A stretch of DNA of 49,154 nucleotides. It comes from Pseudonocardia sp. SCN 73-27 (GTDB lineage Bacteria > Actinomycetota > Actinomycetes > Mycobacteriales > Pseudonocardiaceae). The stretch covers positions 1 to 49,154 of the forward strand of contig MEGH01000029.1 of NCBI GenBank assembly GCA_001725415.1, written 5' to 3'. Every line of letters starts with the position of its first letter. Position 1 is the first letter of the stretch. Positions 89-35,178 of the stretch are shown in pieces. Both the position numbers and the translations under genes were made by a program. Under the pieces are notes generated by a model. It worked only from the letters and a program-made list of their open reading frames with translations. It made no database searches and was not told the origin of the DNA.

Positions 89-93
89 GAACA

Positions 94-9436: not shown

Positions 9437-10953
9437 TGGGCGAGATCCTGCAGGTCACCGACCTGACCGTGCGGTTCGGCCCGACCACCGCGCTCGACGG
9501 CGTCTCGCTGACGCTGCGTGGGGGTGAGGTGCACGGACTGCTGGGACACAACGGTTCCGGCAAATCCACGCTGATCAAGACACTTGCGGGCGTGAACACC
9601 CCGGAGTCGGGGACGGTCACCTCGAACGGCGAGGACCTGGCGCTGCCGGTGAGCCCGACGGCCGCGCGGGCGAGCGGGCTGGCGTTCGTCCACCAGGGAC
9701 TCGGGCTCGCCGAGGACCTCAGCGTCCTGGAGAACATCGCCGTCGTCGCGTTCGACACCGGCCGCGCCGGGCAGATCCGGTGGGGCCACGAGGCCCGCAA
9801 GGCGCGCGAGGAGCTGGCCCGCTTCGGCGTCTCGGTCCGGCTCGACACCCTGGTGCGCGACCTGCCGCCCGTCGAGCAGGCGATCGTCGCGATCGTGCGG
9901 GCGCTCGCCTCGGTCGAGGGCCCGCCGGGTGGCCGGCTCCTCGTGCTCGACGAGCCGACCGTCTACCTGCCGCGTGACCAGGTGCAACGGCTGTTCGACG
10001 CGGTGCGCGGCTTCGTCGCGGGCGGCGACGCGGTGCTGTTCGTGTCGCACCGCATCGACGAGGTCCTGACGTTGACCGACACCATCTCGGTGCTGCGCGG
10101 TGGCCGGCTCGTCGCGACCGAACCCACCAGCGCGCTCGACGAGCGCCGCATCGTCGGGCTGATCGTCGGCCGCGAGCTCGCCGCCGCCGCGCCGGACACC
10201 CACCACGCCACCGGCGAGGTCGCCGCCACGTTCGACGATGTCGCCGGAACGGTGCTGCGGGGCATCTCGTTCACCGTCGCCCGCGGGGAGATCCTGGGCG
10301 TCACCGGGCTCGCCGGCTCGGGCTTCGACGAGCTGCCCTACGTCCTCGCCGGCGCCCGGCGCGGCGCGGGCACCGTCGCGATCGGGGACCGGCGCATCGA
10401 CGTCGCCGGCCTCGACCCGCGCGGTGCCATCACCGCCGGGATCGTGCTCATCCCCGCCGACCGGGCCCGCCTCGGCGTGATCGGCGAGGTCAGCATCCGG
10501 GAGAACGTCGCACTGCCCCGGATGCAGCGGTTCTTCCGCAACGGCCTGCTGCGCGAGGGCTCCGAGCGTGACTGGGTGCGCGCGCTCGTCGACGGGTTCG
10601 GCGTCCTGCACGGTGGCGTCGACCGCGAGATGAACACCCTCAGCGGCGGTAACCAGCAGAAGACGGTGCTGGCCAAGTGGCTCGCGGGCGACCCCGACCT
10701 GATCCTGCTGCACGAACCGACCCAGGGTGTCGACGTCGGCGGCCGCTTCGACATCTACGCCCAGCTGCGCGAGGCCGCCGACCGTGGCGCGGCCGTCGTC
10801 GCCGCAGGTGAGTCGCCCGAGGAGCTCGCCGAGCTGTGCGACCGGGTGCTGATCGTCAAGGACGGCGCGCTCTTCGGTGAGCTCCGCGGTGCACGGGTCG
10901 AGAAGCACGCGATCGTCGACGCCACCTTGTCCGAGACCCCACTACCGCTGTGA
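9436..10953 (+). CDS. Sugar-type ABC transporter ATPase with two nucleotide-binding domains (RbsA-like)
   Basis: 505 residues and two tandem ATPase domains. The first has Walker A GHNGSGKST (37-45) and Walker B LLVLDEPT, but where LSxGQ is expected it reads LPPVEQAI. The second has the degenerate P-loop usual for this family (GLAGSGFDE) but a good signature LSGGNQQ (about 402) and Walker B LILLHEPTQG with His in place of Asp. Asymmetric sites are normal in RbsA-like proteins, although the LPPVEQ change is more drastic than usual. ATG 9436 overlaps the regulator's stop by one base. The stop codon lies inside a 40-bp palindromic repeat (10950-10989). Confidence 0.88.
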   Translation: MGEILQVTDLTVRFGPTTALDGVSLTLRGGEVHGLLGHNGSGKSTLIKTLAGVNTPESGTVTSNGEDLALPVSPTAARASGLAFVHQGLGLAEDLSVLENIAVVAFDTGRAGQIRWGHEARKAREELARFGVSVRLDTLVRDLPPVEQAIVAIVRALASVEGPPGGRLLVLDEPTVYLPRDQVQRLFDAVRGFVAGGDAVLFVSHRIDEVLTLTDTISVLRGGRLVATEPTSALDERRIVGLIVGRELAAAAPDTHHATGEVAATFDDVAGTVLRGISFTVARGEILGVTGLAGSGFDELPYVLAGARRGAGTVAIGDRRIDVAGLDPRGAITAGIVLIPADRARLGVIGEVSIRENVALPRMQRFFRNGLLREGSERDWVRALVDGFGVLHGGVDREMNTLSGGNQQKTVLAKWLAGDPDLILLHEPTQGVDVGGRFDIYAQLREAADRGAAVVAAGESPEELAELCDRVLIVKDGALFGELRGARVEKHAIVDATLSETPLPL

Positions 10954-10989
10954 GCGGCAACGGTCGCCATGGCGACCATTGCCGCTCAC
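10950..10989. repeat. 40-bp palindromic repeat, intact copy 1
   Basis: Arms GTGAGCGGCAAC and ATTGCCGCTCAC flank the perfect 16-bp core GGTCGCCATGGCGACC. Only one arm pair mismatches over all 40 bases. The TGA of the ATPase gene (10951-10953) is inside the left arm. It sits between the transport and enzyme parts of the cluster, so it could form a strong mRNA hairpin and reduce read-through into the hydrolase gene. Related copies are at 94, 24133 and 35139. Confidence 0.9.
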
Positions 10990-11022
10990 GACCGACTCGA
11001 CCTCGTACGAGAAGGAGTGACC

Positions 11023-12459
11023 ATGCTCGACCTCGCGCTCACCGGCGGCCTCGTCGTCGGACCCACCGAGACCTCCGCGCTCGACGTCGGCATCGCCGAC
11101 GGCCGCATCTCGATGCTCACCTCGCCCGGTGGGCTGCCCGAGGCCCGCGAAACCGTCGACGTCTCCGGGCTGACGCTCGTGCCCGGCGGCATCGACCCGC
11201 ACGTGCACTGCGACCTCGCGATCGAGCACGAAGGCCACGAGCCGGCAGTCTCGTTCGGGCCGGACGTCGTCGGCTCCGCGGCGCTCATCGGCGGCACGAC
11301 GACGCTGATCGACTTCGTCTGGCTCAACCCCGGCGAGGCCATCCCGGACGGGATCGAACGGTTCTCCCGGCGCTGGGAGGAGGTCAGCCCGATCGACTTC
11401 TCGTTCCACGTCGTGCTGCGCGGCGGGGTCGGGCGCGAGCTGCTGGCGCAGATGCCGGGCGCGATCGAGGCAGGTTTCCCGAGCTTCAAGGTGTTCACCA
11501 CCAACGTCTTCCCGAGCGCGCCGATCGGCGGCATCCCGCTGATGGTCGACTTCGGGTCGCTGCAGGAGATCCTCGAGACCGCTGCCGAGAACGGTGGCAT
11601 CACGATGATCCACTCCGAGGACGACGACATCGTCCAGCACATGTACCGCAGGCTCCTCGCGGACGACCGCATGGAGTACACGAACCTGCACGAGGTCCAC
11701 AACTCGCTGTCGGAGGACCTGTCGTTCCGCCGCGCGATCAGGTTGGCGCACAAGGTCGGCGACGCCCCGATCTACTTCGCCCACGTCAGCGCCAAGACCG
11801 GCGTCGACGCCATGGCCGAGGCCCGTGCGGAGGGTCGCCCGGTGTTCGGCGAGACCCTGCACCAGTACGCGCTGCACACCTACCACGACTACCGCGAGCC
11901 CGACGGGATGAAGTACCACACCTACCCGTCGCTCAAGGACCACGAGGACACCGAACGTCTGTGGTCGGGCATCGGCCAAGGCGTCCTGTCCTGCTTCGCC
12001 ACCGACGCCCAGGCCACCACCTACGCCGTGAAGACGCAGGGCCGCCGGGTCGACGACGTCGTCGGCGGCAACACCGGCCTCGAGCCGCGGATGGCGCTGC
12101 TCTACACCGAGATGGTCGGCAAGCGAGGCATGACGTTGCAGCAGTACGTCGAGGCCACGTCGGCCAATGCGGCGAAGATCCACGGCCTCTACCCGCGCAA
12201 GGGGTTGCTGGCCGTCGGGTCCGACGCCGACATCCTCGGCCTCTCGACCGGCGTCGAGCGGACGATCACCCACACCGACCTGCACGAGTCCGACTACACG
12301 CCGTGGGAGGGCTGGAACGTCACCGCGTGGCCGCAGCTGACCCTGTTGCGCGGCAAGGTCGTCGCCCGCGACGGGCAGTTCGTCGGCGACCCGACGGGCG
12401 GCCAGGTCGTTCCGCGCACGATCGCCGACGCGATCACCACCGGCCCCCGGTACGCGTGA
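11023..12459 (+). CDS. Dihydropyrimidinase/hydantoinase-type cyclic amidohydrolase
   Basis: 478 residues of the metal-dependent amidohydrolase superfamily. Ligands expected for a binuclear centre are visible: HVH (H60, H62), a lysine that can be carbamylated (K156 in SFKVFTTN), H197, H254 in HVSAKT and D328 in FATDAQ. These enzymes open cyclic amides such as dihydropyrimidines, hydantoins, imides or allantoin. The sequence ATDAQATT at the last ligand differs from the STDHCPF of typical dihydropyrimidinases, so an atypical substrate is likely. ATG 11023 follows GAAGGAG, 33 bases after the palindrome. Its stop overlaps the amidase start by one base, so the two probably act in sequence. Confidence 0.85.
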   Translation: MLDLALTGGLVVGPTETSALDVGIADGRISMLTSPGGLPEARETVDVSGLTLVPGGIDPHVHCDLAIEHEGHEPAVSFGPDVVGSAALIGGTTTLIDFVWLNPGEAIPDGIERFSRRWEEVSPIDFSFHVVLRGGVGRELLAQMPGAIEAGFPSFKVFTTNVFPSAPIGGIPLMVDFGSLQEILETAAENGGITMIHSEDDDIVQHMYRRLLADDRMEYTNLHEVHNSLSEDLSFRRAIRLAHKVGDAPIYFAHVSAKTGVDAMAEARAEGRPVFGETLHQYALHTYHDYREPDGMKYHTYPSLKDHEDTERLWSGIGQGVLSCFATDAQATTYAVKTQGRRVDDVVGGNTGLEPRMALLYTEMVGKRGMTLQQYVEATSANAAKIHGLYPRKGLLAVGSDADILGLSTGVERTITHTDLHESDYTPWEGWNVTAWPQLTLLRGKVVARDGQFVGDPTGGQVVPRTIADAITTGPRYA

Positions 12460-13466
12460 TGGGCCTGCCCCGCATCGGGATCGCCGCGTGCGGCGGGACC
12501 ATCGCCGCGACCGCTTCCGGGGACGGCACCGCGACGCCCCGGCTCGGCGCGGCCGACCTGCTCGACGCCGCGCCCTGGCTGCGTGACATCTCCGATCCAC
12601 AGGCGCGCACCGTCATGACCAAGGCGTCGCCCGACATCACGGTCGACGACGCGCTCCGGCTGTGCGCCGAGCTCGTCGATTTCGTCCGTGACGAGCGGCT
12701 CGACGGCGTCGTCGTCACGAGCGGGACCGACACCCTGGAGGAGGTCGCGTTCACCCTCGACCTCCTGTGGGACGCCGATGTCCCCGTCGTGGTGACGGGC
12801 GCGATCCGCAACGCGAGCAAACCCGGTGCCGACGGGCCGGCGAACCTGACCGCGGCCGTCGCCACGGCGGCGTCCCCGGCGGCCCGCGGGCTGGGCGCGC
12901 TGCTCGTGATGAACGACCAGATCCATGCCGCGCGATACGCCCGCAAGGGCAACTCCGGCAACGTGGCTGCGTTCGTCTCGCCGACGATCGGGCCGGTCGG
13001 TTACCTCGCCGAAGGGGTCCCGGTGATCCCGATGCGGGTCTCGCGGACGCCGCGCGTCGAGACACCGGCTGTTCCGGTGACGGCGCGGGTCGCGCTGCTC
13101 ACCACGTTCATGGGCGACGACGGGGCCCTGCTGCCCGCGGTGGTCGCGGGCGGGTTCGCGGGGCTCGTCGTCGGCGGGTTCGGGGGTGGTCATCTGCCCG
13201 CGGCGGTGGCTGAGCACCCCGCGTTCGAGGAGCTGCTCGCGACGGTGCCCGTCGTGCTCGCGTCGCGGGCCAACTCCGGGGAACCGTTGCGCGCCACCTA
13301 CAGCGGCTTCGCCGGGTCGGAGACGGAGCTGGCTCGCAGGGGCGTCATCAGCGCCGGATCGCTCGACGCCCCGAAGGCCCGCGTCCTGCTCACCCTGCTC
13401 ACGGCCGCAGGACAGTCGCCGGACGGGGTCCGCGCGACCTTCCGCCGGTTCTCCGCACTCCCGTAG
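12459..13466 (+). CDS. Asparaginase-family amidase
   Basis: 335 residues with both catalytic signatures of L-asparaginases: GGTIAAT (T14) and SGTDTLEE (T90, D91). No signal peptide is visible, so it is cytoplasmic. The family hydrolyses the amide of asparagine and relatives. Translationally coupled to a cyclic amidohydrolase (TGATG junction at 12457-12461), it is more likely to cleave the half-amide produced by ring opening than to serve asparagine use. It replaces TGAMRP-like sequence with TGAIRNASKPGADG and keeps the rest of the family core. Confidence 0.85.
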   Translation: MGLPRIGIAACGGTIAATASGDGTATPRLGAADLLDAAPWLRDISDPQARTVMTKASPDITVDDALRLCAELVDFVRDERLDGVVVTSGTDTLEEVAFTLDLLWDADVPVVVTGAIRNASKPGADGPANLTAAVATAASPAARGLGALLVMNDQIHAARYARKGNSGNVAAFVSPTIGPVGYLAEGVPVIPMRVSRTPRVETPAVPVTARVALLTTFMGDDGALLPAVVAGGFAGLVVGGFGGGHLPAAVAEHPAFEELLATVPVVLASRANSGEPLRATYSGFAGSETELARRGVISAGSLDAPKARVLLTLLTAAGQSPDGVRATFRRFSALP

Positions 13467-13489
13467 TCCCTGTCTTGGAGGACACCCGC

Positions 13490-14623
<1,134 letters not shown>

Positions 14624-14670
14624 CGGGTTCGGGCCTTGTCAGCGAGCCGCGCGGGCGCGAACCTGCGCGG

Positions 14671-15795
14671 GTGGACGGCGTTGCGGTCCTGCTGCTCGGG
14701 CCGGTCGCGGCAGAGGGCGGCAGCCGGCCCGTCGACCTGGGACCGCAGCGTCGGCGGGCGGTGCTGGCCGCGCTCGCGTCTTGCGCTGGAGGTGGCGGCC
14801 CGGGCCACACAGGAGGCGGTGTCCGTCGATCTCGTCGCAGCGACGACAAGTGGCGCTGACGTGGACGAAGCCGTCGCCGGCGCCCTCGGCGTGCGCCCCG
14901 AACCCGGTGCGGCCCCGCGGGACACGATCGTCGCCGCACTCGGCGCCCGGGACGTCCTGCTCGTGGTCGACAACTGCGAGCACGTCGTCGACGCGTGCGC
15001 CGCCGCGGTCGGTGCGCTGCTCACCGCGACCCCGGCGCGGGTCCTCGCGACGAGCCGGGAGGCACTCGCGGTGTCCGGGGAGCACGTGTACCCGGTGGCG
15101 CGCTTGGCCTGCGCCCGTCCCGGAGCCCCGGCCGAGGAGATAAGGCGGAGCGACGCCGTCGCCCTGTTCCTCGCCCGTGCGGCGACCGCCCGCCCCGGGT
15201 TCCGCACCGACGATCTCACCGGGGTGCTCGACGTCTGCCGCCGCCTCGACGGGCTGCCGCTCGCAGGCGCCGGGATCGGGGTCGTTGCTGCGTCGCCTCG
15301 ACGTCGAGGTCCCCAACCTGCGGGCCGCGCTGACCTGGGGATTCGGCGCGACCGGCGACCCGTCCGTCGGTGTCGCGCTCGCCGGGTCGTTGTGGCACCA
15401 CTGGGACCTGCGCGGCGCCCGCGCCGAGGGCCTGCGCTGGACCACGGCCGCGCTCGCCGTCGTCGACGACCCGGCCGGGCGGCTGCCGCTGCTGTCGGCC
15501 GCGGCGCTGCTGCACGTCGGCCGCGCAGAGTCGACGCGACCGACGCCGCCGCCCGCGAACAGCTGACCCTCGCCCGCCGCCTCGGCGACCGCGCATCGGA
15601 GGGCGACGCCCTCGGCATGATCGCGACGACCGCGTGGGCGCGCGACGCGCTGCCGACCTCACCGCGCGAGCCCGCGAGCACTACCGCGCCGTCGGCTACC
15701 GGGAGGGTGAGGCGTCAGCGCTGCAGCAGTCGGGACGGCTTGCCGCCGCGTCGGGCGACGACGCCGCGGCACGTCGCGCGTTCGGTCAGGCCCGA
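14671..15795 (+). pseudogene. Decayed AfsR/BTAD-type regulator
   Basis: Pieces of one regulator family occur in order but in different frames. GTG 14671 begins a winged-helix start (VAVLLLGPVAAEGG, PVDLGPQRRRAVLAALA). Near 14780 this jumps to the ATPase just after where the P-loop should be (LALEVAARA, then Walker B VLLVVDNCEH at about 14955). After CRRLDGLPLA (about 15262) there is another deletion and frame change to LLRRLDVEVPNLRAALTWG. TPR-like helices then alternate between frames to about 15795. At least two large deletions and several frameshifts make a functional product implausible. The intact relative at 753-3632 shows what was lost. Confidence 0.8.
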
Positions 15796-15799
15796 CCTC

Positions 15800-16156
15800 G
15801 TCCCCGGCCTGCCGACGCCCACGACCGGCATCGGGCTGCAGGCGCTGCGCGGCGCGGCGGCACGGGTGGCTCCCGACGCCACCGCGTTCCTGCACCGCTC
15901 GCCGCGCCACGACCTGCTCGTCCTCGCCCAGTGGCCCGATCCCGCCGACGACGAGCGCGTCGTCGGCTGGACCCGGACCGCGTACGAGGCGCTGCGGCCG
16001 AACCTCGACGTCGCCGTGTACGTCAACAATCTGGGTGTCGAGGGGCGGGACCAGGTGCGCGCGGCGTTCGGCGCCAACCACGACCGGCTGGTCGCACTCA
16101 AGCGTCGCCTCGACCCCGGCAACGTGTTCCGGCTCAACCAGAACGTCGCACCCTGA
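15800..16156 (+). pseudogene. C-terminal remnant of a berberine-bridge-type FAD-linked oxidase
   Basis: An open stretch without a credible start encodes the end of an FAD-linked oxidase. It includes GLQALRGAAARVAPDATAF, a WTRTAYEALRP segment, YVNNLGVEG and the closing BBE motif LVALKRRLDPGNVFRLNQNV. The FAD-binding PP-loop domain that should precede it is absent; the upstream bases belong to the decayed regulator. It stops eight bases before the end of the minus-strand HTH gene at 16164. Confidence 0.75.
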
Positions 16157-16163
16157 CCACCGC

Positions 16164-16853
16164 TCAGCGGTCGTCGGGCCGGTCCTCCAGGACCGCGACG
16201 CACAGCGCGGGCTCGACGAACGCGAGCAGGTCGGTGGCGCGCAGAGGTGCACCGCAGTCGTCGAGCAGCCCGCGGAGCAGGCCGAGGTGCAGCGCGCAGA
16301 CGACGTCGGGGTGCTCGACGGCCACCTCCCGATAGGGGCACGCGTTCAGCCGGACGCGCGGCCCGTCGACATCGGGTTCGAAGCCGAGCTCGGTGAACAG
16401 CGCGACGACCCGGTCGAGGGCCTCGGGGCCGGTCGCCGGCGGTGTGCCCGGAGCGGGGGCGTGGGCGGCGGCCATCTCCCGGCCGGCCTGCTCGGCCCGG
16501 TCGCGGCGCTCGTCCGGGGTGGGGGCGAGGTTGCCGGCGAGGGCCGCGGCGAGCGCGGCGTAGGGTCCGGGGTTGGCGGCGTGCGTCGCGGTGTAGACGG
16601 CGCGCGGCCGCCCACGGCCGGTGGTGGACGCGAAGTCCTTGCGCGCGAATCCGGCCTCGCACAGCACACCGAGATGGAACCGGACGGTCGTGAGGTGCAG
16701 GCCGGAGGCCGTGCCGAGCTCGTGGACGTCGAGGGGGCCGCCGGCACCGCGCAGCAGGTCGAGCAGGAGGACGCGGCTGGGCACCGAGAGCGCCTCGTGC
16801 CCGCGAACACGCGAGGACGGAGCCTGAGAGGACGGCTGCGCAGGGTTGGTCAT
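16164..16853 (-). CDS. Winged-helix transcriptional regulator (COG2345-like)
   Basis: 229 residues. An ArsR-like winged helix (VPSRVLLLDLLRGAGGPLDVHELGTASGLHLTTVRFHL) is followed by a wing containing GRGRPRAVY. The C-terminal half has NACPYREVAVEHPDVVCALHLGLLRGLL, where the cysteines and histidine could bind a metal or Fe-S cluster as proposed for related regulators. ATG 16853 lacks a Shine-Dalgarno sequence, so the mRNA may be leaderless or start later. It is divergent from the GAF-LytTR gene across about 100 AT-richer bases, suggesting a shared control region. Confidence 0.75.
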   Translation of the reverse strand: MTNPAQPSSQAPSSRVRGHEALSVPSRVLLLDLLRGAGGPLDVHELGTASGLHLTTVRFHLGVLCEAGFARKDFASTTGRGRPRAVYTATHAANPGPYAALAAALAGNLAPTPDERRDRAEQAGREMAAAHAPAPGTPPATGPEALDRVVALFTELGFEPDVDGPRVRLNACPYREVAVEHPDVVCALHLGLLRGLLDDCGAPLRATDLLAFVEPALCVAVLEDRPDDR

Positions 16854-16956
16854 TGTGGCGCTATCCGAATTTAGAGGACCGTCATAGTGTCGGACCGGTG
16901 CGCGGTCAGTGCGGACCGGAGCGGGCCGGTCCGCGACACCGCCGCGGGGAGGCGTC

Positions 16957-18321: not shown

Positions 18322-18327
18322 GACCCG

Positions 18328-23956: not shown

Positions 23957-25347
23957 CGATCCTGGAGATCGAGGGCCTGTGTGCCGACGCGGGGGAGCAC
24001 CGGCTGCTGCACGACGTCGACCTCGTCCTCGAGCGGGGCGAGGTGCTCGCCGTCCTGGGTGAGTCGGGCGCCGGGAAGAGCACACTCGGCCTGGCGCTGC
24101 TGGGCGAGTCCGCTCCCGGCGTAACGCTCTCTGTGCGCGGCAATGGTCGGCACAGCGACTGTTGCCGCGCACGACCGAGCCGAGGCGTCGCGCTCCTGCC
24201 CCAGCACCCCGGCACCGTTCTCGATCCCGTCCGGCGGGTCGGGTCGGTGCTGCGCGAGCTCGCCGCGCTGCGGCACCGCGCCCGCGCGGGCCGCGCAGCC
24301 GCGGTCGCCGAGGCCTGCGAGGCCGCCCGGTTCGACCCCGCCCTGTTGCGCCGCTTCCCCCACCAACTCTCCGGCGGCCAGCAGCAGCGGGCCGCGCTGG
24401 CGCAGACGCTCGTCACCGGGCCCGACGTCGTCGTCCTCGACGAACCCACCACCGGCCTCGACCCCACGACCTCCGCCGAGCTCGTCGAACGCCTCCACGC
24501 CTTGCGCGCGAACGGGACCGCGCTCGTCCTGCTCACCCACGACCTCGACGTCGCCCGCGCCCTCGGCGGCCGCGCGATGCGGCTGGAACACGGTCGCGTC
24601 GTCGCCCGCGGCACCGTCGCCGAGCTGCTCGGCCCCGCTGTGCCGCACGCCATCCCGACGGGCCGGCCCGCCGGCGACGTCCGGCTGCGGGTGCGCGGCC
24701 TCGCGATCGCCGACCGCGCCGGACGCGCCGTCCTGCACGGCGTCGACCTCGACGCCGGCGCCGGTGAGCTGCTCGGCGTCGTCGGGCTCTCCGGGGCGGG
24801 CAAGACGACGCTCGGCCGCTGCGTCGCCGGACTGGCCTCGGCGCGCGGCACGGTCAATGTCGACGGCGCGCTGCTGCCCGCCCGGATCGGGCGCCGCAGC
24901 CGCGCCCAGCGCCGCGCCGTCCAGTACGTCCACCAGGACCCGCGCGCGACATTCCTCGCCCACCGCAGCGTGATCGACCAGGTCGCCCGCCCCGCCGTGC
25001 TGCTGCGCGACGTCCCCGCCGCCGCGGCCCGCGACGAGGCCCACGAGCTGCTGACCAGGCTCGGCGTCGCGCCTGAGGTCGCGGCCCGCCGCCCGACGAC
25101 CCTCTCGGGCGGCCAGCTGCAACGGGCCGCCGTCGCCCGCGCTCTCGTCGCCCACCCCGCGGTGCTGGTCTGCGACGAGGTCACCTCCGCCCTCGACGCC
25201 GCCCACCGGGACCATCTCCTCGCCGCGATCGATGCCCTGCGCCACGACCACGACACCACGGTCCTGCTGATCTGCCACGACCTGTCGCTGGTCGAACGCG
25301 TCGCCGACCGGATCGTGGTCGTCGAGGACGGGCGGGTCCGGATCTAG
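23953..25347 (+). CDS. Fused double ATPase of the peptide-type ABC importer (DppD-DppF fusion)
   Basis: 464 residues with two full nucleotide-binding domains. Domain 1 has Walker A GESGAGKST (36-44), signature LSGGQQQ (about 139) and VVVLDEPTTGLD. Domain 2 has GLSGAGKTT (278-286), LSGGQLQ (about 384) and VLVCDEVTSALD. Each half is shorter than a separate DppD or DppF. Between Walker A and the Q-loop (LLPQHPG) of domain 1, residues 61-77 (VRGNGRHSDCCRARPSR) are encoded by a 40-bp palindromic repeat plus flanking bases. They stand where the family has a beta-strand and a loop of about 30 residues. Catalytic motifs survive, but domain 1 folding may be affected. ATG 23953 overlaps the previous stop. 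Confidence 0.85.
   Translation: MTILEIEGLCADAGEHRLLHDVDLVLERGEVLAVLGESGAGKSTLGLALLGESAPGVTLSVRGNGRHSDCCRARPSRGVALLPQHPGTVLDPVRRVGSVLRELAALRHRARAGRAAAVAEACEAARFDPALLRRFPHQLSGGQQQRAALAQTLVTGPDVVVLDEPTTGLDPTTSAELVERLHALRANGTALVLLTHDLDVARALGGRAMRLEHGRVVARGTVAELLGPAVPHAIPTGRPAGDVRLRVRGLAIADRAGRAVLHGVDLDAGAGELLGVVGLSGAGKTTLGRCVAGLASARGTVNVDGALLPARIGRRSRAQRRAVQYVHQDPRATFLAHRSVIDQVARPAVLLRDVPAAAARDEAHELLTRLGVAPEVAARRPTTLSGGQLQRAAVARALVAHPAVLVCDEVTSALDAAHRDHLLAAIDALRHDHDTTVLLICHDLSLVERVADRIVVVEDGRVRI
24133..24172. repeat. 40-bp palindromic repeat, intact copy 2, inside the ATPase gene
   Basis: Arms GTGCGCGGCAAT and GTTGCCGCGCAC flank GGTCGGCACAGCGACT, whose core has drifted from the perfect palindrome of the other copies. 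The copy lies wholly inside coding sequence and the reading frame passes through it without a stop. Because 40 is not a multiple of 3, frame retention requires a compensating change or replacement of native codons. Confidence 0.9.
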
Positions 25348-28046: not shown

Positions 28047-28060
28047 GCTACGGTGGTCCG

Positions 28061-28597
28061 GTGGGGGACGAGGTTGCTCCGCGCGACCTGCGGGTGTCGC
28101 ACGCCGAACGCGAGCACGTGTCGCGGCTGCTGGCCGCGCACCTCGAGGCCGGCAGGCTGAGCCCCGACGAGTACGAGACCCGCAGCGCCGCCGCCGTCGC
28201 CGTCACCCGTGCCGACCTCAACCAACTGCTGCTCGATCTGCCCGGGGCCGAGGCCGTCCGCTCGCGCGAGATACTCGAGTGGACCAGCAACCACGGCGAC
28301 CTCGAACGCAGCGGCGAATGGCTCGTCCCCTCACGGATCGTCGTGCGCTCGCATTTCGGCGACGTCAAGCTCGACCTGCGCGACGCCCGCTTCATGACAC
28401 CCGTCGTCACCCTCGACGTCGACATGTGGGTCGGCGACGTCGACCTGCGGCTCCCGCCGGGCGGCACCGTCGACGTCGACGAGGTCCGCGTCCACGTCGG
28501 GCACGTGACGAACACGATCACCCCGGCGGTGCACCGGGGTGATCCTCATGTCGTCGTCCGCGGCAGGCTCTACGTCGGGGACGTCAAGACCCGCTGA
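28061..28597 (+). CDS. DUF1707 domain protein
   Basis: 178 residues. The N-terminal 55 residues are a DUF1707 domain (DLRVSHAEREHVSRLLAAHLEAGRLS, then DEYETRSAAAVAVTRADLNQLLLDLPG), followed by a beta-rich part with repeated Asp-Val strands (VVTLDVDMWVGDVDLRLPPGG) resembling cell-wall-active LiaF-like domains. GTG 28061 begins 14 bases after the M23 gene, so the two may be cotranscribed. A broken paralogue lies at 29622. Function unknown; DUF1707 proteins are common and poorly characterised in actinobacteria. Confidence 0.85.
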   Translation: MGDEVAPRDLRVSHAEREHVSRLLAAHLEAGRLSPDEYETRSAAAVAVTRADLNQLLLDLPGAEAVRSREILEWTSNHGDLERSGEWLVPSRIVVRSHFGDVKLDLRDARFMTPVVTLDVDMWVGDVDLRLPPGGTVDVDEVRVHVGHVTNTITPAVHRGDPHVVVRGRLYVGDVKTR

Positions 28598-28599
28598 GC

Positions 28600-28893
28600 T
28601 CACCGCCACGTCGGCTCCTCACCGGTGAACGACGGTGCCGGCGGGAACCCGGCGTCGTCGAGCGGGCGGCGGCCCGTCCGGTGGTCGTGCATCCGGCTGT
28701 CCAGCAGGAACAGGATCGCCGACAGCATCAGCAGCCCGACCGCCACCGCGACGTGCAGCGTCGCGGCACAGACGATCGCCACCCCCGCCCCGACCAGCAG
28801 CGCCGCCAGCCGGACACCCGGGTGCCGACGCGCCGGCTCCGGCGGCTCGCCCTGCGTGCCGGTGGTGACAGGGGGCGTGACGGTGGCGTTCAT
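28600..28893 (-). CDS. Small two-helix membrane protein, paralogue of the gene at 29076
   Basis: 97 residues: a Pro/Thr-rich start, two membrane helices (LAALLVGAGVAIVCAATLHVA and AVGLLMLSAILFLLD) and a tail HRTGRRPLDD. It shares this plan and the HR-GRRPL tail with the protein at 29076-29378. ATG 28893 is preceded by AGGAG. It ends two bases after the DUF1707 gene, tail to tail. No known function. Confidence 0.75.
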   Translation of the reverse strand: MNATVTPPVTTGTQGEPPEPARRHPGVRLAALLVGAGVAIVCAATLHVAVAVGLLMLSAILFLLDSRMHDHRTGRRPLDDAGFPPAPSFTGEEPTWR

Positions 28894-29075
28894 GACGCGG
28901 TCTCCTCGCTGGTCCGGGGGTCTTTCCCGATGCCTCCAGACTCGCCCGGTTCGGTGCGCCGCACCGTCGGCCTGCCGGAGGAGGCAGGGGACGACGCGCA
29001 TGTCCGTCGATCGGAGGACACCCCGGACATGCCTCGGGCCCGGCACGAGGCCGGGCCCGGAGAGGCGGTGCACCA

Positions 29076-29378
29076 TCAGCGGACGGTCGGAAGGTTCCCG
29101 GCCATCGGGGCCGACGGGCGGAACTGCTCCATCCGCAGCGGGCGACGCCCCGAGCGGTGACCCTGCACGACCGCGCCGACGAGGAAGAGCAGCGCGGCGA
29201 GCATCAGGACCGAGACAGCGGCGGCGGTGTGGACGCTCGTGCCGAGCGCGACGGCGAGACCGGCGCCGACGAGGAGCGCGACACCGCGGGCGGCGTTCTG
29301 GCCCACGGTCCGGGTGGAGGTGGAGCCGCTGCGGTCGATGGGGGCGAAGGGGTTGGTGGGGGTGAAGGGCGTGTCCAT
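29076..29378 (-). CDS. Small two-helix membrane protein, second copy
   Basis: 100 residues with the same layout as its neighbour: helices ARGVALLVGAGLAVALGTSV and VSVLMLAALLFLVGAVV, then HRSGRRPLRMEQF. ATG 29378 follows GGAGA. The upstream regions of both copies carry similar blocks (TTTCCC-CGATGCCTC and GACGACGC), so promoter and gene were duplicated together. The gap 28894-29075 holds no other gene that I can see. Confidence 0.75.
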   Translation of the reverse strand: MDTPFTPTNPFAPIDRSGSTSTRTVGQNAARGVALLVGAGLAVALGTSVHTAAAVSVLMLAALLFLVGAVVQGHRSGRRPLRMEQFRPSAPMAGNLPTVR

Positions 29379-29621
29379 GATCCGGTCTCCGATCCTGTGG
29401 CCCGGGGCTGTTTCCCCGATGCCTCAAGGTTCGTCCCGAACGTGCCTGCGCACCCTCGGTCGGCCGATGGGTGCGGGGGACGACGCCGCTGTCCCCCGAG
29501 CGGCCGACGGTGCCCGACGCGCGCGGACCGGACAGCCTGTCCCGGCCGGGGGCATCCCCGAGGCCGGGATCGGGGTCGTTCCCGGATGTCCGGGACCCGC
29601 TGCGTCCCTGGCGTTCTTCCC

Positions 29622-29980
29622 ATGACGGACGAGATCGCACCCCAGGACCTGCGCGTCTCCCACGAGGAGCGCGAGCACGTGACGAAGCTGCTGGCGGCCC
29701 ACTTCTCCGAGGGGCGTCCGACCGTCGACGAGTACGGCGAGCGGACGGCTGCCGCCGCGGAGTCGGTGACCCGGGCCGACCTGAACCGGCTCCTGCTCGA
29801 CCTTCCCGGCGCCGAGGGGCGCGGACCCGTGAGGTGCTGGAGCTGTCCAACACGGCGGGCGACCTGAAGCGTGGCGGCACGTGGATCGTGCCGCCGAAGA
29901 TCGGGCCGTCGGCGGAGCGGGGGATGCCGCACGTGGTGGTGCGCGGCGGGTCGTGGATGGGCAACGTGCGGGTGCGCTGA
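29622..29980 (+). pseudogene. Frameshifted and internally deleted DUF1707 gene
   Basis: ATG 29622 starts a DUF1707 domain (DLRVSHEEREHVTKLLAAHFSEGRPT, DEYGERTAAAAESVTRADLNRLLLDLPGAEG) closely like the intact gene at 28061. At about 29815-29825 the frame shifts and the homology continues in another frame (RTREVLELSNTAGDLKRGGTWIVPPKI). That in turn lacks the central beta-rich part before MPHVVVRGGSWMGNVRVR. It is therefore both frameshifted and shortened. Confidence 0.8.
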
Positions 29981-30000
29981 GACCGGCGACGGTTCGCGCG

Positions 30001-30918
30001 TCAGTCGGCCGTTGCGTCGCCCAGTCGGCGGTCCAGTTCGTCGGCGAGGTGGTCGAGTGCGGCGGCGGCGCGCCGGGAGAGGTGCCGGCCTGCTGGGTAC
30101 ATGGCGACGACGTCGGCGCGCGGGGTGGGGACCTCGTGCAGGACGCGGACGAGGACACCGTCGCGCAGCAGGGGGCCGACGTGCCACAGCGAGCGCATGA
30201 GCAGTCCGTGCCCGTCGACGCACCAGCGGGTGGCGACGTCACCGTCGTTGGTGATCATCGTGCCGGGGACGCGGACGGTGGTCTCGGCGGCATCGTCGCC
30301 GAAGCGCCACACGGTGTGGTCGGTGTCGATCTCGCGGATGACGATGCACTGGTGCTCGGCGATGTCGGTGAGGCAACGGGGGGCGCCGTGCTCGGTGACG
30401 TAGCCCGGCGAGGCGCAGACGACGCGGCGGTTGGGCAGCAGCGTCCGGCAGAGCAGGGCCGAGTCGTCGCGGTGGCCGACGCGGATCGCGAAGTCGAAGG
30501 GGCTTCCGGCGACGTGCAGCGGCAGGTGTGAGAGTTCGAGCTCGACGGAGACGCCGGGGTTGGTGGCGGCGAAGGCGCCGAGGGCGGGGGCGACGTGGGA
30601 GCGGCCGAGGCCCATGGTGGCGTGGACGGCGACGCGTCCGCGCAGGGCGCCGCGGCGTCGGCCGACGTCCTCCTCGAGGTCGCTGATCAGGGGGAGCAGT
30701 CGGGCGGCCCCGGCGGCGTAGCGGTCGCCCTCGTCGGTGAGGCTGAGCCGGCGGGTGCTGCGGCGGACGAGCTGGGCGCCGAGGCGGCGTTCGAGCGAGG
30801 CGAGGCGTTTGCTGACGGCCGATGTGGACACGCCCCAGCGCCGTGCGGCCTCGGTGAGGGTGCCGGCGGTGGCGATGCCGTCGAAGAACTCCAGATCGTC
30901 GAGGTCGGGGAGGTCCAC
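30001..30918 (-). CDS. LysR-family transcriptional regulator
   Basis: 305 residues. The HTH (EFFDGIATAGTLTEAARRWGVSTSAVSKRLASLERRLG) is followed by a LysR effector domain (VAVHATMGLGRSHVAPALGAF, NRRVVCASPGYVTEHGAP). I chose GTG 30918 because AAAGG lies upstream and the HTH starts normally; a TTG at 30948 is possible. It is divergent from the tartrate/D-malate dehydrogenase, the classical arrangement for a LysR activator of one neighbouring gene responding to its substrate. Confidence 0.88.
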   Translation of the reverse strand: MDLPDLDDLEFFDGIATAGTLTEAARRWGVSTSAVSKRLASLERRLGAQLVRRSTRRLSLTDEGDRYAAGAARLLPLISDLEEDVGRRRGALRGRVAVHATMGLGRSHVAPALGAFAATNPGVSVELELSHLPLHVAGSPFDFAIRVGHRDDSALLCRTLLPNRRVVCASPGYVTEHGAPRCLTDIAEHQCIVIREIDTDHTVWRFGDDAAETTVRVPGTMITNDGDVATRWCVDGHGLLMRSLWHVGPLLRDGVLVRVLHEVPTPRADVVAMYPAGRHLSRRAAAALDHLADELDRRLGDATAD

Positions 30919-30970
30919 CTCGGCACGCCTTTCTTTCGAGCGACGCAAAGGTCTTGGGTCGAATCGCGCC

Positions 30971-30999
30971 TGGAACCGCAGTTTTGTGCCGCCTAGGCT
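30971..30999 (+). promoter_or_regulatory. Probable promoter of the dehydrogenase gene
   Basis: TGGAAC (30971-30976) and TAGGCT (30994-30999) are separated by 17 bases and resemble a sigma70-type actinobacterial promoter. The start would fall near 31006, leaving a leader of about 30 bases with GGAAAGGA ahead of the GTG at 31038. It lies in the LysR/dehydrogenase divergent gap. Confidence 0.45.
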
Positions 31000-31037
31000 A
31001 CAGACGGCAGGGTCGCCGATCCAGGAAAGGAACGTTC

Positions 31038-32108
31038 GTGACGAAACACCGCATCGCTGTGATCCCAGGTGACGGCATCGGCAAGGAGGTCGTGCCGGAG
31101 GGCGTGCGGGTCCTGCGAGCCGCGGCGGCCACGTTCGGCTTCGATGTCGAGCTCGCGGACTTCGACTTCGCCTCCGCCGACTACTACCAGCAACACGGCG
31201 CGATGCTGCCCGACGACTGGTTCGAGACGCTGCGCGACTTCGACGCGATCTTCTTCGGCGCCGTCGGCTGGCCGGAGGTCGTGCCGGACCACATCTCGTT
31301 GTGGGGCAGCCTGTTGCAGTTCCGGCGCCGCTTCGACCAGTACGTCAACCTGCGCCCGGTCAAGCTGCTGGAGGGCGTCCGCAGCCCGCTCGCCGACCGC
31401 AGGCCCGGCGACGTCGACTTCCTCGTCGTCCGCGAGAACACCGAGGGCGAGTACTCGAGCGTCGGTGGCAAGATGTTCGAGGGGACCGACCGCGAGACGG
31501 TGCTGCAGGAGACGGTCATGACGCGCGTCGGCGTCGACCGGATCCTGAAATACGCCTTCGAGCTCGCGCAGGCCCGCCCGGCCCGGCACCTCACGTCGGC
31601 GACCAAGAGCAACGGCATCTCGATCACCATGCCGTACTGGGACGAGCGCGTCGTCGAGGCGGCCGCCGGCTACCCCGACGTGCGCGTGGACAAGTACCAC
31701 ATCGACATCCTGACGGCCCAGTTCGTGATGAACCCCGACCGGTTCGACGTCGTCGTGGCCAGCAACCTGTTCGGCGACATCCTGTCCGACCTCGGTCCGG
31801 CCTGCACCGGCACGATCGGCATCGCGCCCAGCGGCAACATCAACCCGGAACGCACCTACCCGAGCCTGTTCGAGCCGGTCCACGGCTCGGCGCCCGACAT
31901 CGCGGGCAAGGGGATCGCCAACCCCGTCGGCCAGATCTGGTGCGTGTCGATGATGCTCGAACACCTGGGCGAGTCCGAGGCCGCGGCCGCGGTGATGCGT
32001 GCGATCGAGACGGTGCTGGGCCGTGGCGGCGACATCCTCACCCCCGACATGGGCGGCACCGGGACGACCTCGGCGCTCGGCGCAGCGGTGGCCGCAGAGC
32101 TGGCCTGA
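31038..32108 (+). CDS. Tartrate dehydrogenase/decarboxylase or D-malate dehydrogenase
   Basis: 356 residues, close to the TtuC/DmlA group of beta-decarboxylating dehydrogenases: VIPGDGIGKEVVPEG, FFGAVGWPEVVPDHISLWG, RENTEGEYSSVGG, SNLFGDILSDLGPA and EPVHGSAPDIAGKGIANP. The SLWG segment is typical of tartrate/D-malate enzymes and separates it from leucine-pathway LeuB. It would oxidise D-malate or tartrate with NAD+, giving pyruvate or glycerate-type products. GTG 31038 has GGAAAGGA upstream. Its paralogue at 13490 is more distant and lacks SLWG. Confidence 0.85.
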   Translation: MTKHRIAVIPGDGIGKEVVPEGVRVLRAAAATFGFDVELADFDFASADYYQQHGAMLPDDWFETLRDFDAIFFGAVGWPEVVPDHISLWGSLLQFRRRFDQYVNLRPVKLLEGVRSPLADRRPGDVDFLVVRENTEGEYSSVGGKMFEGTDRETVLQETVMTRVGVDRILKYAFELAQARPARHLTSATKSNGISITMPYWDERVVEAAAGYPDVRVDKYHIDILTAQFVMNPDRFDVVVASNLFGDILSDLGPACTGTIGIAPSGNINPERTYPSLFEPVHGSAPDIAGKGIANPVGQIWCVSMMLEHLGESEAAAAVMRAIETVLGRGGDILTPDMGGTGTTSALGAAVAAELA

Positions 32109-32125
32109 CCGGGCAGGATGCCCGC

Positions 32126-32233
32126 ATGGACGACCGGGCGGGCTTCGCGGGCGCCGTGACGGGCGCGAGTGCGGCCCTGCTCGGTCTGCTGGTCGCCGCG
32201 TCGTCGATGATCGCGTTGCTGATGCTCGTCGCG
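32126..32233 (+). other. Short gap with a possible remnant of a membrane-protein N-terminus
   Basis: The 125 bases between the dehydrogenase and the YihY gene contain ATG 32126 followed by a hydrophobic stretch (AALLGLLVAASSMIALLMLVASG). It then runs antisense through the YihY gene without homology. It could be a fragment or chance; no ribosome site is convincing. Confidence 0.2.
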
Positions 32234-33064
32234 TCAGGCCGGGTCGTCGGTCTCCTCGGGGTCGTCGGCGGTGCCGGTGGTCTGCGCCAGCTCCGCGCCC
32301 AGTACCGCCGACACGACGAGCAGCACCCCGAGCACGACCAGCCACGACAGCACCACGGTGGCGACGCCGAGCAGCCCGAGCCGCTCGGCCGCCCGGGACG
32401 CGGTCACCGGCACGATGAACCCGGACGCGGTCACGAGCAGCGCCTGACCGGCTCCGGTGACCGCCGCGCCGGGCAGCAGCGCCTGCCAGCCGACCCGGCC
32501 CCGCAGCAACAGGAACTGGATGGGCCACCACAGGATGAGCGCGGTCACGGCGTAGGCGACCAGCGACACGACGGGACTGCCGACCAGCCAGCCCAGCAGC
32601 GGTGCGAGCAGCACCAGCACCGCGAGCTCCAGCACGAGCGCCGCGGACACGAGGAGGCTGCGCGCGTAGCCACGGATGCCGGTCGACGGCAGGTTCCACG
32701 CGGCGCTGTAGGCCCGTTGCAGCGAGCGCACGAAGCCCAGCACCGAGACCACGAGCAGAACCCAGCCCAGTGCCGTCAGGGAGTGGTCGGCGGAGGGCCG
32801 TTCGAGGAGGCCGCCGACGGTGTCGGCGGCCGACGGGGAGAAGCCGAGGCTGCTCGCCAGCTCCGTCAGCCGGCCGGAACCACCGAGCCCCTCGGAGATC
32901 ACCAGTATCGCCGGGACGAGCGCCACGAAGGCCTGCGACGCCAGCGCGAGCGCCCGGTCGTAGCCGCTGATGGCGGTCATGCGGCGCATCACCCGCACGA
33001 CGAGCCGGTCGCCCACGAGCGTGGTGACGCGCCGGACCAGCCGGTCAACCAGGTGCGACGTCAT
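32234..33064 (-). CDS. YihY/BrkB-family inner membrane protein
   Basis: 276 residues and about six membrane helices with YihY-type segments (ALASQAFVALVPAILVIS, SLQRAYSAAWNLP, WWPIQFLLLRGRVGWQALLPGA). The family was once annotated as ribonuclease BN, which is incorrect; its role is unknown. ATG 33064 lies 20 bases inside the end of the AI-2E gene, so the two are probably cotranscribed. Confidence 0.85.
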   Translation of the reverse strand: MTSHLVDRLVRRVTTLVGDRLVVRVMRRMTAISGYDRALALASQAFVALVPAILVISEGLGGSGRLTELASSLGFSPSAADTVGGLLERPSADHSLTALGWVLLVVSVLGFVRSLQRAYSAAWNLPSTGIRGYARSLLVSAALVLELAVLVLLAPLLGWLVGSPVVSLVAYAVTALILWWPIQFLLLRGRVGWQALLPGAAVTGAGQALLVTASGFIVPVTASRAAERLGLLGVATVVLSWLVVLGVLLVVSAVLGAELAQTTGTADDPEETDDPA

Positions 33065-34196
33065 CCCGCGGTTCCTCGACGGTCGGTGGCGCGGCCTCGA
33101 CGGCCGCGGGCGCCGGGGCCTTCGGAAGGCTGCCCCCGGTGAGCAGCCCCGACATCCACCGTGTCCCCGGGTCGGCGTCGACGAGCAATGCCTTGGCCAG
33201 CAACGTCAGCGGGATCGCGAGGACGGCGCCGATCGGCCCGACGACGAACGACCAGAACACCACCGACAGGAACGTCAACGTCAGCGAGAGGTTCACCGTG
33301 TTGCTGACGTACTTGGGCTGGATCACCGAGGCGAAGACGAAGTTGAGGACGCAGTAGCCGACGATCACGAAGATCATCAGTCTGGGCCCGCCCGCCAGCA
33401 GCCCGAGCAGCGCGGGCGGGACGAGCCCGATGATGAAGCCGATGTTCGGGATGTAGTTGGTGACGAACGCGAGCAGCGCCCACAGCACGGGCAGCGGCAC
33501 ATCGAGGATCACGAGCAGGGCCCCGTCGAGGACGGCGATGATCAGCCCGAAGATCGTCGAGACGACGAGGTAGCTGCGGGTACCGCGGACGAACCCGCGG
33601 ATCGCGAGCGCCATGTCGGACCGCGACTCCCCGGCCTCCTCCATCCGCCGGGAGAACGTCGCGGCGTCGATCCCCATGAACACGACGACGAACACGATGA
33701 ACACCAGGTCGGTGAGGACGCCGACGAGGCCCGTCAGCAGCCCGGTGACCACCCCGGCGAGCCGGCCGAAGTCGAACTGCGACAACACCGACTGCAGCTG
33801 CTCCTGGCCGACGCCGAGTGTGCCGAGCCAGCGGCGCAGGTCGCCCAGCAGGGACGCGAACTGGCTCTGGTAGGTCGGCAGGACGGTGGCGAGCTGGGCC
33901 ACCGCGAGGGCCAGCGACAACGCCAGGCCGACGATGATCGCGAACGCCACGATCATCGTGACGACGACCGCGAGCCATTGCGGCACACCACGTCTGCGCA
34001 GCGCGCCGGTGAGCGGGTGCACCCCGATCACCACCACCAGGGCCAGCAGCACCGGTGCGACGACGCCCGACAGCTCTCTGAGCGCCAGCACCGACACGAG
34101 CAGTCCGGTCGTCCCCAGCACGACGACCAGCCCTCGCGGAAGCGTCGTCAGGGCCGCGACGCGGCGCGGGGCGTCGCCTGATCCGGTGTCCGCCAT
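33045..34196 (-). CDS. AI-2E family transporter
   Basis: 383 residues with about eight membrane helices and the family's central amphipathic region. Recognisable segments are VIGVHPLTGALRRRGVPQWLAV, LLVILDVPLPVLWALLAFVTNYIPNIG and GPIGAVLAIPLTLLAKALLVD. Family members export autoinducer-2 or act as Na+/H+ antiporters; the substrate cannot be assigned. ATG 34196 follows a G-rich ribosome site. The C-terminal tail is Pro/Ala/Glu-rich. Confidence 0.85.
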   Translation of the reverse strand: MADTGSGDAPRRVAALTTLPRGLVVVLGTTGLLVSVLALRELSGVVAPVLLALVVVIGVHPLTGALRRRGVPQWLAVVVTMIVAFAIIVGLALSLALAVAQLATVLPTYQSQFASLLGDLRRWLGTLGVGQEQLQSVLSQFDFGRLAGVVTGLLTGLVGVLTDLVFIVFVVVFMGIDAATFSRRMEEAGESRSDMALAIRGFVRGTRSYLVVSTIFGLIIAVLDGALLVILDVPLPVLWALLAFVTNYIPNIGFIIGLVPPALLGLLAGGPRLMIFVIVGYCVLNFVFASVIQPKYVSNTVNLSLTLTFLSVVFWSFVVGPIGAVLAIPLTLLAKALLVDADPGTRWMSGLLTGGSLPKAPAPAAVEAAPPTVEEPRDDVAPG

Positions 34197-34303
34197 CGCG
34201 TCCCCCCGTGGGCCGTGCCGGCGGCGTCTGCCCCGGATGATCACCCGGCAGCGTGGCATCGACCGCCCCCGATGTCACGCTTCGCGCGCCCGGCGGGAGG
34301 TGT

Positions 34304-34921
34304 TCAGGCGCGGACCTCCGGGCCCAGCGCGGCGACGTCGTCGTAGCCCACGGCGCCCGGTGCCGCCGACGGCGCGTACTGCAGCCGGACGACGCCCGTC
34401 GGCAGGGCTTCCGTCGACAGCAGCCGCAGGTGCTGGTGCTCGTCGCCCTCGTCGAAGAGCCGCTTCCCCGTCCGGGCGGCGACGGGGTGCACGAACAGTC
34501 GCAGCTCGTCGAGCAGCCCGGCAGCGAGGAGCTGGCGCACCACGGAGATCGAGCCGGGGATCAGCACCCGGCCCAGCGTCTCGTCGGCACGCAGGGCGGC
34601 GACCGCGTCGGTGAGCTCGCCGTCGATCAGCTCGGAGTTGCGCCACGTGAACTCGAGGGGTGACCGGGACACGACGATCTTGCGCCGGTCCCCGAGCGAC
34701 GCGGCGAACTCGGCGTCGTCACCACCCGCGGCCTCCCGGTCGGGCCAGGCCCCGGCGAAGCTGTCGTAGGTGACGCGGCCGAGCAGCAGCGTCCCGACGC
34801 CCTCGTAGTCCTCCGACACGGCCCGGCCCATGTTCTCGTCGAAGTACGGGAAGTGCCAGGTCTCGCCGATCTCGGCGACGCCGTCGAGGCTGATGAACAG
34901 GGTGGAGACGATCGTCGTCAC
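34304..34921 (-). CDS. Dihydrofolate reductase / RibD C-terminal-like reductase
   Basis: 205 residues matching the RibD_C reductase family: FISLDGVAE at the N-terminus, LLLGRVTYDSFAGAWP, KIVVSRSP, and IPGSISVVRQLLAAGLLDELRLFVHPV. It likely binds NADPH; physiological substrate unknown. GTG 34921 is preceded by GGAGG. A second, divergent member of the family is at 39734. Confidence 0.82.
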   Translation of the reverse strand: MTTIVSTLFISLDGVAEIGETWHFPYFDENMGRAVSEDYEGVGTLLLGRVTYDSFAGAWPDREAAGGDDAEFAASLGDRRKIVVSRSPLEFTWRNSELIDGELTDAVAALRADETLGRVLIPGSISVVRQLLAAGLLDELRLFVHPVAARTGKRLFDEGDEHQHLRLLSTEALPTGVVRLQYAPSAAPGAVGYDDVAALGPEVRA

Positions 34922-34980
34922 GGTGGGTCCCTCCGGGTCCGGGTGCGGTCACCGGTTACGACCGCCGGACCCGGAGGAAC

Positions 34981-35135
34981 TCATCGCTCGGGTCGGCCGA
35001 CGGCGGCGGTCAGTGCCTCGACGTCGGCGCCGGAGAGATCGACGGCCGCGGCGGCGACGTTGTCCTCCAGGTGCGCGACCGACGACGTGCCCGGGATCGG
35101 CAGCATCGCGGGGGAGCGGCGCAGCAGCCCACTCC
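34981..35135 (-). pseudogene. C-terminal fragment of an aldo/keto reductase
   Basis: About 50 codons give [20 protein letters not shown], then [25 protein letters not shown] and a stop. This is the typical aldo/keto reductase C-terminus with the NADPH-binding IPGTS segment. The catalytic barrel is missing: sequence homology ends at the 40-bp palindrome that starts at 35139. Confidence 0.75.
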
Positions 35136-35138
35136 CCT

Positions 35139-35178
35139 GTGCGCGGCAATGGTCGCCATGGCGACTGTTGCCGCGCAC
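35139..35178. repeat. 40-bp palindromic repeat, intact copy 3
   Basis: Arms GTGCGCGGCAAT and GTTGCCGCGCAC flank GGTCGCCATGGCGACT. It is the closest relative of the copy at 24133, with identical arms, and shares the CGCCATGGCG core with the copy at 10950. It marks the exact point where the aldo/keto reductase homology stops. Confidence 0.9.

What the first reader, a model, noticed from the sequence alone, without database searches (positions are those of the whole stretch)
10950..35178. Dispersed 40-bp palindromic repeat family
Three full copies (10950-10989, 24133-24172, 35139-35178) and one half copy (94-121) share the plan GTGMGCGGCAAY, a 16-bp core GGTCGCCATGGCGACC, and the complementary arm. 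All three full copies are exactly 40 bp, although arms (GTGAG versus GTGCG) and cores vary in compensating ways. The contexts differ: over a stop codon, inside a gene, and at a gene break. It matches no REP, ERIC or MIRUS-type repeat that I know, and suggests a small mobile palindrome or a protein-binding site spread through the genome.
Basis: partly seen in the sequence, partly recalled or inferred. Interest (0 to 1): 0.78.

Follow-up and report, generated by a model that had tools for sequence, protein, structure and literature searches.

The report
Copied DNA hairpins at gene ends
A 40-letter mirror-image DNA repeat, present in at least about a hundred copies in this soil bacterium and mostly sitting just behind genes, looks like a new family of tiny repeats that were copied around the genome and whose two halves change together; what copies them is not known.

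Summary
In detail: the palindromes belong to a family with at least 104 sites in this Pseudonocardia genome. A general pattern matches 49 of 62 genus genomes, with no control hits. All 80 listed loci of a capped scan over 84,980 species are Pseudonocardiaceae. The outer arms are fixed; the inner stem differs between species but stays paired (87.7% of 300 inner cells; 104 double changes, 39 in shuffles). Copies lie behind genes, most densely between convergent ones. Signs of copying: one copy in an ABC-transporter gene is absent from two relatives, and a two-armed hybrid recurs at 17 of 54 sites of one relative. Units at the same gene end in sister species are no more alike than unrelated units (few pairs). 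An IS end lies at the same point of the palindrome in three of three places. It behaves like REP elements but lacks the GTAG tag, and Y1 transposases are absent from 57 of 62 genus genomes, this one included. No T-tract follows it. I call it a new REP-like variant; the copying enzyme is unknown.

The parts
10947..10993 (+). Copy 1 with flanks GCT ... GACC. Its GTGAG supplies the TGA stop (10951-10953) of an ABC ATPase gene.
   Evidence: G023 has a unit at the same place
24130..24176 (+). Copy 2, inside an ABC-transporter ATPase gene, read in frame.
   Evidence: present in G023 and G017 orthologs, absent in G077 and G013
35136..35182 (+). Copy 3 with flanks CCT ... GACC, in the space 3' of an HMGL-like gene.
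94..124 (-). Cut copy: flank CCT, left arm and core, interrupted after GCGACC.
1..93 (-). End of an insertion sequence (begins TGTTCTGTCTCAG on the minus strand), truncated by the contig edge, inserted into the palindrome.
   Evidence: three of three copies of this 93-bp end found in the genome lie at the same point of a family member
9436..10953 (+). Host gene: ABC transporter ATPase whose stop codon lies in copy 1.
   Evidence: PF00005
23953..25347 (+). Host gene: ABC transporter ATPase with two PF00005 stretches, carrying copy 2.

Best explanation
This is a non-autonomous, REP-like mobile palindrome family of Pseudonocardiaceae. In Pseudonocardia each unit is a tag (GGTC or CCTC read on one strand), an 18-bp stem and a 4-nt centre, and a short opposite tail (mostly AGG or GGG). 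Shown: many copies, pairing of the arms kept through changes, genome-specific inner stems, preference for 3' gene ends, a unit in a gene whose relatives lack it, a recurring asymmetric hybrid, restriction to one lineage in the scans made, and three of three IS ends at one point of it. Inferred: an enzyme supplied in trans recognises the fixed outer arms (perhaps as an extruded hairpin) and copies units to new places. Insertions survive mainly behind genes because they do least harm there. Afterwards the two arms are kept complementary, by template switching or by selection, and the units of one genome are homogenised towards its current sequence. The enzyme is unknown and, in this genome, not a Y1 transposase of the PF01797 family. 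A secondary role of resident units in termination or in translation of the gene in front is possible.
For: At least 104 sites in the own genome. 49 of 62 genus genomes match, control 0 in all. All 80 listed loci of the named scan are Pseudonocardiaceae. Inner stem, one unselected unit from each of 30 genomes: 87.7% of 300 cells paired, 104 double changes against 39.0 in shuffles; a chosen set of 36 gives 96.9% of 648. Gene insertion present in 3 of 5 aligned orthologs. In G013 17 of 54 sites hold the same two-armed hybrid, one site has the first arm on both sides. Density per kb of intergenic DNA: convergent 2.35, tandem 0.57, divergent 0.17. The rest of a convergent spacer with a unit (median 20) is about as long as a spacer without one (26), as if 40 bp were added. 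A.C and G.U mismatches are about equally frequent, 24:22 and 25:24. Three of three IS ends lie in it.
Against: No transposase or cognate protein was found, and only PF01797 was sought. No clean empty site gave exact borders, and I saw no target-site duplication; several 'empty' orthologous sites keep remnants of the outer ends, so many units are old. The unit in the ABC gene could in principle have been lost in G077 and G013. Thirteen of 62 genus genomes lack the pattern, and 400 kb of G025 hold no unit. In Amycolatopsis units often lie tens to hundreds of nt from the stop codon.
Confidence: 0.6

Rival explanations
1. Immobile hairpins kept by selection on the RNA: bidirectional terminators, mRNA 3'-end stabilisers, or brakes on translation of the gene in front.
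For: In Pseudonocardia the unit starts a few nt behind stop codons, often of both convergent genes. All double changes at strictly matched gene ends are compensated: 12 of 12, 15 of 15, 4 of 4. In E. coli, REPs nearer than 16 nt to a stop codon were reported to lower translation (passage in PMC12306157 citing earlier work).
Against: No T-tract: 0 of 195 units have 5 or more T in the 10 nt behind the stem. No excess of G.U over A.C mismatches on the oriented strand. A terminator does not need one sequence per genome. One unit lies inside an ABC gene, and a hybrid pairing at only 12.5 of 18 positions recurs at 17 sites.
Confidence: 0.2
2. Binding sites of a sequence-specific DNA-binding protein (nucleoid or recombination factor) that co-evolve with it.
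For: Fixed outer arms, one or a few inner sequences per genome, dyad symmetry at DNA level, no strand bias of mismatches.
Against: A 40-bp site is long for a regulator (recalled); two or three unrelated inner sequences and hybrids coexist in one genome; one unit lies in a gene.
Confidence: 0.15
3. Classical REP/REPIN elements moved by a resident RAYT (IS200/IS605 Y1 transposase).
For: Size and gene-end placement are REP-like (PMC3733652). Five of 62 genus genomes do hold a PF01797 protein, among them one rich in units, G022 (62 and 62 matches).
Against: PF01797 is absent in the own genome and in 57 of 62; G000, G023, G069 and G075, all rich in units, lack it. No GTAG tag.
Confidence: 0.05

Closest known systems
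CGTC-tagged REP superfamily (Di Nocera et al. 2013, PMC3733652; abstract, section 4 part 1 and passages seen)
   Same: Small palindrome with a tag at one end ending in TC (CGTC, TGTC or CCTC there; mostly GGTC or CCTC here), short opposite tail, 4-nt loop in one family, placement behind genes, also found inside genes, no dedicated transposase reported.
   Different: Stem 18 bp instead of 8-9 and beginning GTG instead of AT; tail AGG-like instead of CCA. The phyla that section lists for the two tags do not include Actinobacteria.
GTAG-tagged REP / REPIN-RAYT
   Same: 20-40 bp palindromes at convergent or tandem 3' gene ends, species-specific stems with paired changes.
   Different: No GTAG; no Y1 transposase in the own genome; much longer stem.
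DNA-uptake-sequence terminators (Haemophilus and relatives; PMC5217627, passages seen)
   Same: One repeated sequence in dyad form at gene 3' ends.
   Different: No T-tract; the whole 40-bp unit is conserved rather than a short word; the passage gives about 1300 copies in H. influenzae, here at least about a hundred were found.
REP-targeting insertion sequences such as IS1397, ISKpn1, IS621 (recalled, no call)
   Same: An IS end here lies at one fixed point of the palindrome in three of three places.
   Different: Family of this IS not determined; its body was not found.

Membership tests
GTAG REP / RAYT system | GTAG (or close variant) tag beside the stem | tested here: not met
   flanks are CCY and GA followed mostly by CC or GG in G000
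GTAG REP / RAYT system | Y1 (HUH) REP-associated transposase in the genome | tested here: not met
   PF01797: 0 hits in own genome, 5 of 62 in genus
GTAG REP / RAYT system | Intergenic, between convergent or tandem genes, rarely divergent | tested here: met
CGTC REP superfamily | CGTC, TGTC or CCTC tag at one end | tested here: inconclusive
   reverse of GACC/GAGG gives GGTC in 45 and CCTC in 19 of 71 oriented G000 units; GGTC 42, CCTC 10, CGTC 4 of 64 in Amycolatopsis, where the tag is mostly paired
CGTC REP superfamily | 8-9 bp stem beginning with AT, CCA tail | tested here: not met
   18-bp stem beginning GTG, tail AGG-like (definition)
CGTC REP superfamily | No dedicated transposase associated | tested here: inconclusive
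   no Y1 enzyme in the own genome; other transposase classes not tested
Intrinsic terminator | T-tract directly behind the hairpin | tested here: not met
   0 of 195 Pseudonocardia units
MITE | Terminal inverted repeats plus target-site duplication, related autonomous element | tested here: inconclusive
   the whole unit is an inverted repeat; no clean empty site, no duplication seen, no autonomous element found
Rfam RNA family | Match at gathering score | tested here: not met
   0 matches in the window

The most novel reading that the evidence does not exclude
An undescribed copying system, not based on a Y1 transposase, maintains a population of 40-bp hairpins at gene ends. It both inserts new units and overwrites resident ones in place, so positions are inherited while sequences are replaced by the genome's current version; insertion sequences exploit the hairpins as targets.
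Probability: 0.3. Interest if true: 0.85.

Novelty: new variant of a known kind. Interest (0 to 1): 0.6.

Why it matters
The REP catalogue that I looked into does not list Actinobacteria for either tag; a later tool counts palindromes in three Actinomycetota genomes under a much looser definition. A Pseudonocardiaceae family with an 18-bp stem, without RAYT in this genome, and with positions inherited but sequences replaced, asks directly what copies such repeats. The family includes Amycolatopsis and Saccharopolyspora, known antibiotic producers (recalled).

Tried and rejected
Chance: rejected. Conserved coding sequence: rejected; in 665 kb of G000 only 2 of 54 units lie well inside gene calls, and the window's unit in an ABC gene is missing in two relatives. 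RAYT: rejected for this genome. Canonical intrinsic terminator: rejected by the missing T-tract. Plasmid or phage origin: no match for one typed consensus in each collection, an Amycolatopsis form against plasmids and a Pseudonocardia form against phages. G025 against G065 as a close pair: the assemblies are identical over 320 kb and no unit was found there, so nothing was learned on turnover.

Corrected while working: my count of swapped subfamilies at orthologous sites (three of 11) shrank after reading the alignments: one is at exactly the same place, one about 20 nt away beside a remnant, one elsewhere in the same spacer. The strict comparison keeps 6 of 11 pairs for G000/G023, 6 of 8 for G000/G017 and 4 of 7 for G023/G017. 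In one search the looser G023/G017 comparison gave a permutation fraction of 0.044 in favour of positional memory; the strict one gave 0.57. One search counted one G013 site twice (18 of 55); the recount is 17 of 54. The 36 rows were chosen by me, one per genome, leaving out weak, 39- and 41-bp units, so its 96.9% is too favourable; repeat the inner-stem count on all 30 loci without choice.

Literature: ten searches. Three gave nothing at two to four terms each (47, 48, 64) and 90 gave none; of the long lists I saw only the top (20 of 98, 15 of 37, 12 of 688, 12 of 941). No listed title or abstract described this family. Subscription papers and preprints are not held.
Full report
What is there. 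The three palindromes and the cut copy are at the stated places. A left-half pattern gives 8 matches in the window with 0.04 expected; one of the 8 is unrelated. In the own genome (6.95 Mb, 99 contigs) a covariance model built from 34 of 35 copies first found gives 150 rows, which are 104 distinct sites; only 150 candidates were scored, so this is a floor. The unit is CCY-[GTGAGYGG-YRAYRGTCGC-4 nt-mirror image]-GA followed mostly by CC or GG. Of 71 oriented G000 copies, GACC follows in 45 and GAGG in 19 (6 further copies could not be oriented).

Spread. A looser pattern (GTGMGYGG, 24 free bases, CCRCKCACGA) matches 49 of 62 genomes of the genus, at most 119 and 123 times on the two strands (G023), and its reversed control matches none of them. 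Genomes with one or two matches may be chance. In 396 genomes of the phylum (237 genera) only the own genome and one other, with a single poor palindrome, match; the reversed control hits 3 of these genomes, so that single hit is at chance level. Contig lengths shared with P. kunmingensis and P. oceani identify the window's genus as Pseudonocardia.

Anatomy. On one unit from each of 30 genomes, taken without choice as the first match, the ten inner pairs, which were not part of the pattern, pair in 87.7% of 300 cells; 104 cells are changed on both sides (39.0 in shuffles), the covariation score is 0.785 against 0.218, and slid controls fall far below. A chosen set of 36 gives 96.9% of 648 cells over all 18 pairs; two of its rows come from the duplicate assemblies G025 and G065. 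Within G000 the same holds on a smaller scale. Mismatches are about as often A.C as G.U: 24 to 22 in G000, 25 to 24 in relatives, 21 to 16 in Amycolatopsis (orientation arbitrary there); other mismatches number 6, 20 and 34. Selection on one RNA strand should favour G.U, so the constraint looks DNA-level or acts on both strands. In Amycolatopsis the unit mostly reads GGTC-GTGAGTGG-8 variable-GTT(AG or CT)AAC-8-CCACTCAC-GACC.

Context (gene calls by my own codon-usage script, not by annotation). G000, 51 copies: a gene on the same strand ends -4 to 21 nt before the unit in 35; divergent 4, inside a gene, the other 6 behind genes of the other strand. Relatives, 56 rows including a few weak palindromes: convergent 26, tandem 22, divergent 0, inside 6, undetermined 2. 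Named genomes, 87 rows: convergent 45, tandem 31, divergent 5, inside 4, undetermined 2. In Pseudonocardia stop codons mostly end 3-9 nt away, or the unit's own GTGAG supplies the TGA; in Amycolatopsis distances reach hundreds of nt. In 665 kb of G000, largely chosen because copies were known there, 54 units were found; density per kb of intergenic DNA is 2.35 in convergent, 0.57 in tandem and 0.17 in divergent spacers; convergent enrichment p = 2.6e-8. The rest of the spacer with a unit has median 20 in convergent pairs (26 without a unit) but 106.5 in tandem pairs (19 without), so units avoid close-packed tandem genes. No T-tract follows: 0 of 195 units.

Copying. Window copy 2 lies in an ABC-transporter ATPase gene and is read in frame. 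G023 and G017 carry a unit at the same place; G077 (82% identical) and the more distant G013 do not. In G013, 17 of 54 sites hold one and the same hybrid with two different arms and poor pairing (12.5 of 18), while the first arm is on both sides at one site (arms assigned to the nearest of three reference arms; by an exact 8-base test 16 sites are one-armed). Many copies of one asymmetric combination are best explained by copying.

Old sites, new sequences. Between G000 and G023 (flanks 91% identical) 11 gene ends hold a unit in both; these differ by 8.45 of 40 bases, no less than unrelated cross-genome pairs (7.98), while units within G023 differ by 4.42 and within G000 by 9.74. In the strict set of 6 pairs the difference is 7.5 against 8.77 (permutation fraction 0.19); for G000/G017 (6 pairs) 9.0 against 8.87, for G023/G017 (4 pairs) 6.0 against 6.17. 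All double changes are compensated: 12 of 12, 15 of 15, 4 of 4. At one gene end the inner stem differs at five pairs at exactly the same place. The numbers are small. Several gene ends without a unit in one species keep remnants of its outer ends. So positions are inherited, while sequences change in pairs and tend to the genome's current type. Template switching inside a quasi-palindrome (recalled mechanism) could explain paired drift; it does not explain the likeness of units within a genome such as G023.

An IS uses it. The first 93 bases of the window recur at two other contig ends of the genome (within 4 bases of the end), and in all three places they join a family member directly behind its GCGACC or GCGGCC. 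A similar but different end in contig C84 joins another member at the same point; it was found by looking for half units, so it is not an independent count. The IS bodies were not found; the smallest of the 20 contigs looked at is 5.2 kb.

Comparison. Di Nocera et al. 2013 (PMC3733652: abstract, section 4 part 1 and passages) describe REPs as 20-40 bp palindromes with a GTAG or CGTC tag, mostly between convergent or unidirectional genes, in the two cases detailed mostly within 20 bp of the 3' ends, sometimes inside genes, the CGTC class without dedicated transposase. The present family works like these, and its tag resembles the CGTC class loosely. It fails the GTAG and Y1 tests and the stem and tail definition of the CGTC families, so I do not file it as a member of either. 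PMC12306157 (passages) lists thousands of putative REPs in three other Actinomycetota genomes under a loose definition and does not name Pseudonocardia or Amycolatopsis in its main text; nor does PMC13155455 (passages). PMC5217627 and PMC2267715 were seen by passages.

Noticed in passing
window 1-93; L387 1-93; L388 1501-1593: A 93-bp IS end at three contig edges, always inserted at the same point of a family member; probably a palindrome-targeting IS whose body was not found.
   Followed up: partly
L405 1-127 (G000 contig C84): A second, similar IS end joined to another family member at the same point.
   Followed up: partly
G013 copies listed: A subfamily with two different arms (17 of 54 sites), which breaks the palindrome yet recurs.
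   Followed up: partly
L138 9550-9589; G000:C3:124612 and 208535: A second G000 subfamily with inner stem near GTTAYTGGC, at L138 lying 44 bp from a main-family copy.
   Followed up: partly
L140 12307-12356: Two short 25-bp palindromes GTGAGTGGCGACAGTCGCCACTCAC in tandem, apparently a centre-deleted form.
   Followed up: no
G025:C2:1-320000 and G025:C11:80001-160000 (L323-L342): No unit found in 400 kb although the genome has 36 and 45 pattern matches on its two strands; distribution along the chromosome may be uneven.
   Followed up: no
G025 and G065: Two assemblies counted as separate species are identical over the 320 kb compared.
   Followed up: no
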